A stretch of DNA of 64,000 nucleotides, taken from Candidatus Rokuibacteriota bacterium (GTDB lineage Bacteria; Methylomirabilota; Methylomirabilia; Rokubacteriales; CSP1-6). A program made the translations under genes and the position numbers. Location: NCBI GenBank assembly GCA_003220685.1, contig QHTE01000069.1, positions 1-64,000 of the forward strand, written 5' to 3'. Within the stretch, counting starts at the first letter, position 1. Every line of letters begins with the position of its first letter. Of this stretch, positions 48,334 to 49,111 are shown in pieces. The notes below the pieces were generated by a model. The model had not been told where the DNA came from. It saw nothing but the letters and a program-made list of their open reading frames with translations, and did no database searches.

Positions 48334-49111
48334 GTGCGACCGTTACAGGAGCGCTACGAGATCATCAGGCTATGGCGCGCCGGGAATAGCGCCAAGAGCC
48401 TTGCCCGACGGAGTGGGATCCCGCGCGCGACTATTCAATACTGGATCCGGCACTTTGCTGGTGTAGCCCAAACGGCAGAGGCAACCGACTTAAAATCGGT
48501 ACAGTGGGGGTTCGAGTCCCTCCACCAGCACCAGCACGCCGCTTACGTCTATCTCCTGGGGCTGTACCTCGGCGACGGCTACATCAATCGACCGCCAAAG
48601 ACATACCTTCTCCGGATCTTTCTCAACGACGGCCCGCCTCGCGTCGTCGCCGAAGCGTCTCGAGCGATCGCGCTGCTCATGCCCAGACGTGTCGGGCTTG
48701 GCCGACAGGGCCGATGCCGGTTCGTCAGAGCGTACTGGGGCGGGTGGCCGGCAATGCTCCCACAGCACGGGGCCGGCAAGAAGCATTCTCGAAAGATCGC
48801 GCTCGAGCCGTGGCAAGAGAAGCTCGTCGCAGCGCACCCGGATCAGTTCGTACGCGGCTGCATCCATTCTGACGGCTGTCGGCATCGGCGCATCGTCAGA
48901 GGCAAAAACTATCCGGCTTACGCATTCTCCCAATCGGTCGTCGGATATTCTCGAGCTCTTCGCGTGGACGTGTCGGCTCCTCGGTCTGCGGGCCATCCGC
49001 TCGAGCCAGATCGCGATCTCCATCGCTCGTCGGCCTGACGTCGCCAGGCTCGACGAGATCATGGTCCGCTCGTGGAGCGACCAGCCGCAGGCGGGGACAC
49101 TGTCCGGCTGA
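48334..49111 (+). pseudogene. HTH + LAGLIDADG-like (homing-endonuclease-like) protein, interrupted by a +1 frameshift at about 48929-48931 and carrying an in-frame tRNA gene between the domains
   Basis: Frame 1: MRPLQERYEIIRLWRAGNSAKSLARRSGIPRATIQYWIRHFAG...YVYLLGLYLGDGYIN...LPQHGAGKKHSRKIALEPWQEKLV...FVRGCIHSDGCRH; continues in frame 2 as NRSSDILELFAWTCRLLGLRAIRSSQIAISIARRPDVARLDEIM to TGA 49111. Confidence 0.75.
48457..48533 (+). tRNA. tRNA with anticodon UAA (Leu by codon), short class-I variable loop, CCA encoded; nested within the HTH/LAGLIDADG ORF
   Basis: Acceptor gctggtg/caccagc; anticodon stem accga/tcggt with loop cTTAAaa; variable acagt; T-arm ggggg-ttcgagt-ccctc; discriminator A; CCA. 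Confidence 0.88.

What the first reader, a model, noticed from the sequence alone, without database searches (positions are those of the whole stretch)
48457..48533. UAA-anticodon tRNA with a class-I (short) variable loop instead of the expected class-II leucine arm
Anticodon loop cTTAAaa gives UAA (Leu), and discriminator A73 fits Leu. The variable region is only ACAGT (5 nt), whereas bacterial tRNA-Leu normally has a long variable arm. The D-stem is also weak (GCCC vs AGGC, C13/A22 mismatch). It may be a divergent tRNA-Leu, a mobile-element tRNA or a differently charged tRNA.
Basis: partly seen in the sequence, partly recalled or inferred. Interest (0 to 1): 0.72.

Follow-up and report, generated by a model that had tools for sequence, protein, structure and literature searches.

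The report
Short-armed leucine tRNA inside nuclease cassette
This is a real leucine tRNA for the rare codon UUA that lacks the usual long side arm; the type is common in actinobacteria and phages, but here it sits, as foreign DNA, in frame inside a decayed gene for a DNA-cutting (homing-type) protein and fills the slot where close relatives keep a normal long-armed tRNA.

Summary
48457-48533 is a 77-nt tRNA with anticodon UAA, a 5-nt variable loop, A73 and an encoded CCA. It is probably a genuine leucine tRNA. All E. coli leucine identity elements that do not depend on the long arm are present. The assembly holds no other UUA-reading tRNA, its four other leucine tRNAs being class II. In genomes with this type, UUA codons align with leucine as often as CUG codons do. 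The type is not unique: it was the only UUA tRNA found in 22 of 22 sampled carrier genomes (mostly Actinomycetota, some others), and it is frequent in phages. I found no paper that discusses it. The new part is the context. The slot is the ancient pgsA...Gly-Cys-Leu(UAA) tRNA array (E. coli glyW-cysT-leuZ). Congeners with 92% identical flanking DNA carry class-II tRNA-Leu(UAA) there; in the window about 0.85 kb between the flanks is foreign. The tRNA lies in frame between an HTH domain and a two-motif LAGLIDADG domain; relatives of that protein lie within 300 nt of a tRNA in 29 of 29 actinobacterial-scan loci (27 tRNA-Leu). Best reading: a homing-endonuclease-like cassette swapped the tRNA gene, then decayed. 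Cleavage, homing and charging are untested.

The parts
48457..48533 (+). class-I (short variable loop) tRNA-Leu(UAA) with encoded CCA; anticodon 48491-48493, variable loop 48501-48505, A73 at 48530
48276..49120 (+). foreign block (HTH + tRNA + LAGLIDADG) between flanks that are 92% identical to same-genus genomes; right edge approximate
48334..48456 (+). HTH_23/HTH_28 domain, in frame, ending at the base before the tRNA; possible GTG start at 48334
   Evidence: (Pfam HTH_23 E 1.3e-6)
48534..49111 (+). LAGLIDADG-like domain, motif YLLGLYLGDG and second motif FVRGCIHSDG; +1 frameshift near 48927-48930, so broken in this assembly
47673..47747 (+). tRNA-Gly(GCC), first member of the conserved array
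47780..47855 (+). tRNA-Cys(GCA), second member of the conserved array
47904..48275 (+). conserved 123-aa ORF of unknown function, left flank, highly similar in congeners up to its stop codon
49143..49904 (+). lgt (prolipoprotein diacylglyceryl transferase), right flank; N-terminal ~19 codons of congeners missing here
44481..45050 (+). pgsA-type CDP-alcohol phosphatidyltransferase, upstream of the array as E. coli pgsA is of glyW-cysT-leuZ

Best explanation
The tRNA is a working leucine tRNA that reads UUA. It belongs to a widespread short-armed class that bacterial LeuRS charges through A73, U8:A14, A15-U48 and the D/T-loop corner, none of which needs the long arm. It was not formed in place: it came as the middle of a cassette HTH - tRNA - LAGLIDADG, one open frame in which the tRNA sequence encodes the linker between the two protein domains. 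The protein family behaves like a free-standing homing endonuclease tied to tRNA-Leu genes. Repair or recombination at the tRNA-Leu(UAA) locus copied the cassette in and replaced the resident class-II tRNA. Because the cassette brings its own UUA tRNA, the loss was harmless. The nuclease part later decayed (frameshift) and the short-armed tRNA stayed as the only UUA tRNA found. Shown: tRNA structure, foreign block, in-frame layout, family link to tRNA-Leu, sole UUA tRNA in the assembly. Inferred: charging, nuclease activity, homing as the cause of the swap.
For: tRNA. Identity elements (reviewed in PMC9976931) invariant in Rokubacterial class-I genes; in 217 sequences U8 and A73 are 217/217 and 15-48 is A-U or G-C in 206. 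Own genome: Leu CAA, CAG, UAG, GAG all class II, UAA only class I. Family of 57 genomes: class I >=100 bits in 8, class-II UAA-type >=94 bits in 26, no overlap at those scores. TTA codons align with Leu in 41 of 48 cells at 18 sites, CTG 86%. Block swap: flanks 92% DNA identical to G006, 91% to G003; block 65-68% with a different tRNA class and an added HTH. Same HTH-tRNA-LAGLIDADG frame in G020/G038 (HTH_23 E 5.5e-7 in G020); apparent remnants of both domains beside the class-I tRNA in G030. LAGLIDADG fold of the intact G006 relative: AlphaFold pLDDT 88.5, Foldseek hits I-DmoI, I-AniI, WhiA; LAGLIDADG_3 E ~1e-4. 29/29 loci of the actinobacterial scan within 300 nt of a tRNA gene, 27 of them tRNA-Leu; 3 of 4 phage relatives directly after tRNA-Leu(UAA).
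Against: The window's LAGLIDADG frame is broken, so this copy as assembled cannot be active. An AU test does not reject vertical descent of the LAGLIDADG domain within the genus (p 0.146). HTH codon-position pattern between G000 and G020 gives no clear sign of coding constraint. The assembly is 87.6% complete and lacks a LeuRS hit, so an unseen class-II gene elsewhere cannot be excluded. G045, one class-I genome, also carries a class-II locus cut by a contig end, probably a mixed bin. Some class-I genomes (G049, G052, G054) show no HTH or LAGLIDADG at the locus.
Confidence: 0.6

Rival explanations
1. The tRNA is an ordinary short-armed tRNA-Leu(UAA) that spread by plain homologous recombination or phage transfer of the tRNA array; the HTH-LAGLIDADG gene is a passenger and had no part in the swap.
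For: Class-I Leu(UAA) occurs at the locus in G052, G054, G049 without a recognisable HTH or LAGLIDADG; such tRNAs are common in phages without a LAGLIDADG neighbour.
Against: The LAGLIDADG family is found beside tRNA genes, nearly always tRNA-Leu, and the block edges enclose HTH, tRNA and nuclease together; G030 shows apparent decayed remnants of both domains.
Confidence: 0.25
2. The HTH-LAGLIDADG protein is a WhiA-like DNA-binding regulator of tRNA-Leu expression, not a nuclease.
For: WhiA is among the structural matches and the protein has an HTH.
Against: Both LAGLIDADG motifs keep their acidic residue (D22 invariant, D122 nearly so); patchy presence (17 of 57 family genomes) and frequent frameshifts or stops fit a selfish element better than a regulator; the HTH is N-terminal, unlike WhiA.
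Confidence: 0.1
3. The tRNA is not charged with leucine (suppressor, allo-tRNA or regulatory tRNA-like RNA).
For: Short arm unlike textbook bacterial tRNA-Leu; UUA is rare in this high-GC genome.
Against: 7/5 acceptor branch, all non-arm Leu identity elements, sole UUA decoder found, TTA aligned with Leu.
Confidence: 0.05
4. Assembly or binning error placed this block in the genome.
For: Draft of 137 contigs, 3.98% contamination, LeuRS missing.
Against: Block and both flanks lie on one 76-kb contig with genus-typical flanks; the same layout occurs in two other genomes, G020 and G038.
Confidence: 0.04

Closest known systems
class-I tRNA-Leu(UAA) of Actinomycetota and their phages
   Same: Same anticodon loop CTTAAAA, D-arm CCCAA..GGCAGAGGC, A73, 5-nt variable loop; sole UUA tRNA found in sampled carrier genomes; annotated tRNA-Leu in mycobacteriophage records
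   Different: Acceptor stem GCTGGTG/CACCAGC; embedded in an HTH-LAGLIDADG frame, not seen around the actinobacterial copies
E. coli leuZ, class-II tRNA-Leu(UAA) of pgsA-glyW-cysT-leuZ
   Same: Same slot in the same tRNA array, same anticodon
   Different: Long variable arm; no nuclease cassette
free-standing LAGLIDADG homing endonucleases (I-DmoI, I-AniI fold)
   Same: Two LAGLIDADG motifs in one chain, same predicted fold, patchy and decaying distribution
   Different: N-terminal HTH, tie to tRNA-Leu genes, not within an intron or intein, tRNA as domain linker; activity untested
WhiA (DUF199)
   Same: LAGLIDADG-like domain plus HTH
   Different: HTH on the other end; acidic motif residues kept here; linked to tRNA genes and decaying
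allo-tRNAs with 8/4 or 9/3 branches (reviewed in PMC7609411)
   Same: Non-canonical bacterial tRNA structure
   Different: This tRNA has the normal 7/5 branch

Membership tests
bacterial tRNA-Leu | leucine anticodon (UAA) and A73 | tested here: met
bacterial tRNA-Leu | U8:A14, A15-U48, G18G19, A20a | tested here: met
   elements from PMC9976931
bacterial tRNA-Leu | long (class-II) variable arm | tested here: not met
   variable loop of 5 nt
bacterial tRNA-Leu | charged by LeuRS | not testable with these tools
   indirect only: TTA sites aligned with Leu
class-I tRNA-Leu(UAA) of Actinomycetota/phages | shared D-arm, CTTAAAA loop, 5-nt variable loop, A73 | tested here: met
LAGLIDADG homing endonuclease | two LAGLIDADG motifs and fold | tested here: met
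   (fold tested on the intact G006 relative)
LAGLIDADG homing endonuclease | acidic residue in both motifs | tested here: met
   present in the window copy (YLGDG, HSDG)
LAGLIDADG homing endonuclease | intact open frame in the window | tested here: not met
   frameshift near 48927-48930
LAGLIDADG homing endonuclease | site-specific cleavage and homing | not testable with these tools
   only linkage and patchiness
WhiA | C-terminal HTH after LAGLIDADG | tested here: not met
   HTH is N-terminal
allo-tRNA (8/4 or 9/3) | lengthened acceptor stem with short T-stem | tested here: not met
   7/5 branch

The most novel reading that the evidence does not exclude
A family of HTH-LAGLIDADG homing endonucleases specialises in tRNA-Leu genes and, in Rokubacteria, carries a complete functional tRNA-Leu(UAA) as the in-frame linker of its own coding sequence, so that homing replaces an essential host tRNA gene with a structurally different class that may also be immune to the nuclease. 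The frame contains a UUA codon, so making the nuclease needs the very tRNA it encodes.
Probability: 0.35. Interest if true: 0.85.

Novelty: new variant of a known kind. Interest (0 to 1): 0.62.

Why it matters
Textbooks treat the long arm as a fixed mark of bacterial tRNA-Leu. Here and in many actinobacteria the apparently essential UUA tRNA does without it, which makes the E. coli finding that LeuRS does not need the arm testable in nature. If the cassette reading holds, it shows a selfish nuclease swapping an essential tRNA gene for a different structural class, a mechanism of tRNA gene replacement that could explain scattered tRNA oddities across genomes.

Tried and rejected
Suppressor or allo-tRNA: normal 7/5 branch and identity elements. 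Tandem duplicate in G049: scaffolding gap with Ns. G045 as a genome with both classes: two Gly-Cys arrays of different GC, likely mixed bin. LAGLIDADG tree as proof of transfer: AU test p 0.146, inconclusive. HTH codon-position test: no signal. A second or special LeuRS: single full-length gene in class-I genomes G020, G038, G054; none found in the window genome. Phage and plasmid record searches with the window protein: no match. First genome-contig scan with the window protein: none. Promoter scan: none found. Conserved spacing of tRNA and LAGLIDADG in class-II loci hints that translation starts in or before the tRNA, but 9 of about 11 related loci is weak. Literature: nine searches found no description of class-I tRNA-Leu(UAA) nor of tRNA-Leu-linked HTH-LAGLIDADG genes; the nearest is a note on a short-loop tRNA-Leu(TAG) in a mycobacterial tRNA cluster (PMC6582537). 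Subscription journals were not searched.

Full report
Observation. ARAGORN and Rfam both call a tRNA at 48457-48533: acceptor stem 7 bp, T-stem 5 bp, anticodon UAA, variable loop ACAGT, A73 and an encoded CCA. The 61-bit score and the strict conservation in relatives rule out chance.

Which amino acid. In E. coli, A73, U8:A14, A15-U48, G18G19 and A20a matter for leucylation, and the long arm does not (review PMC9976931). All are present and invariant in the eight Rokubacterial sequences aligned. In 217 distinct class-I Leu(UAA) sequences, U8 and A73, which the search did not demand, are 217/217; the other elements were partly demanded by the search pattern. The window genome's other leucine tRNAs (CAA, CAG, UAG, GAG) are class II, and no second UAA tRNA was found. 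TTA codons in genes of class-I genomes align with leucine in 41 of 48 cells at 18 sites, like CTG at 86%. Most of the clean sites come from G020, G038 and G054, and a few window sites lie in mechanically chosen frames. So UUA most likely means leucine and this tRNA is the only candidate reader found. Charging itself is inferred.

Not unique. In 22 of 22 such genomes it was the only UUA tRNA the pattern found, including two mycobacterial chromosome records. It is also common in viral contigs, often in tRNA arrays, and phage annotators call it tRNA-Leu. I found no paper that remarks on it; the library is partial.

The slot. The window carries pgsA and further downstream tRNA-Gly(GCC), tRNA-Cys(GCA), then this tRNA. 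E. coli has pgsA-glyW-cysT-leuZ, leuZ being tRNA-Leu(UAA). Contig L171, the same length as G045:C123 and with the same tRNA, is labelled Candidatus Rokuibacteriota, so the window's family is taken to be Rokubacterial. Across 57 genomes of this family, 8 hold the class-I gene and 26 the main class-II type, with no genome in both lists; a pattern search finds a Leu(UAA)-like gene in 51 of 57 genomes, the remaining genomes with a hit having another class-II type. G045 is the exception: it also has a class-II gene cut by a contig end, in a second Gly-Cys array, so its bin is probably mixed. Class I and class II are mixed within genera g1, g14 and g23.

The foreign block. The window's flanking proteins are about 95% identical to those of same-genus G006 and G003, which have class-II tRNA-Leu(UAA). 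DNA identity is 91-92% up to 48275, the stop codon of the upstream ORF, and again from about 49120. Between them lie an HTH domain absent from the congeners, the class-I tRNA and a LAGLIDADG gene only 65-68% identical in DNA. A tree of the LAGLIDADG domain places the window copy on a long branch outside the g1 group, but the AU test does not reject grouping (p 0.146). The swap argument therefore rests on the block as a whole.

The frame. HTH (48334-48456), tRNA (48457-48533) and LAGLIDADG (from 48534) share one open frame; the tRNA encodes AGVAQTAEATDLKSVQWGFESLHQH. The same layout occurs in G020 and G038, with HTH_23 at E 5.5e-7 in G020. In phage relatives HTH and LAGLIDADG are joined by a linker of about the same length, with no tRNA in it. 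G030 retains what look like remnants of both domains around its class-I tRNA. No constraint could be shown on the HTH by codon position. The window's LAGLIDADG has a +1 shift near 48927-48930, and several relatives are broken as well.

The protein family. Intact relatives match LAGLIDADG_3 weakly but consistently, hold two motifs with their acidic residues, and the G006 protein folds confidently (pLDDT 88.5) into the LAGLIDADG fold, with I-AniI, I-DmoI and WhiA among the nearest structures. In 397 genomes drawn from the actinobacterial phylum, 28 carry a relative; all 29 loci lie within 300 nt of a tRNA gene, 27 of them tRNA-Leu (CAA, UAG, CAG; one UAA, a Rokubacterial-type locus) and 2 tRNA-Trp. 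With five or six tRNA-Leu genes per genome, chance proximity is roughly 0.002 per gene (my estimate). Three of four viral relatives follow tRNA-Leu(UAA) directly and the fourth precedes tRNA-Ala. In Rokubacteria 17 genomes, including the window's, carry it, nearly all at the tRNA-Leu(UAA) locus.

Mechanism. I propose that a tRNA-Leu-linked, homing-endonuclease-like cassette invaded the locus and carried its own UUA tRNA, which replaced the class-II gene; the nuclease then decayed. Shown: block, frame, linkage, decay. Inferred: cutting, homing and charging. The chief rival is ordinary recombination with the nuclease as passenger.

Limits. The assembly is 87.6% complete and lacks a LeuRS hit, although related class-I genomes such as G020, G038 and G054 hold one normal LeuRS gene. 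No bench result on this tRNA or protein was found.

Noticed in passing
L069:100-189 (G000:C96) and L070:99-187 (G000:C13): Two odd class-II tRNA-like genes with palindromic anticodon stems and U73, near 39 bits in RF00005; perhaps allo-tRNAs of cysteine type.
   Followed up: no
window 49143-49200: The lgt gene lacks about 19 N-terminal codons (58 nt) present in congeners, just downstream of the foreign block.
   Followed up: partly
window 48490-48492: The protein frame through the tRNA contains codon TTA, so translating the nuclease would need this same tRNA; class-II loci have TTA in the same relation.
   Followed up: no
window 49975-51375: RtcB-type RNA ligase gene lies a short way downstream of the tRNA array.
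   Followed up: no
L055 (G092) 261-337: tRNA-Trp(CCA) embedded in a frame that resembles the HTH-tRNA part, in another family of the same class.
   Followed up: partly
L439 and L443 (G045): One genome bin holds two Gly-Cys-Leu arrays, class I and class II, with different GC; probably a mixed bin.
   Followed up: yes
G000 assembly: No bacterial LeuRS found above cut-off in the window's genome; likely an assembly gap.
   Followed up: partly
L496 (G461): A genome drawn as actinobacterial carries a Rokubacterial-type class-II Gly-Cys-Leu-LAGLIDADG locus; misbinned contig or transfer.
   Followed up: no
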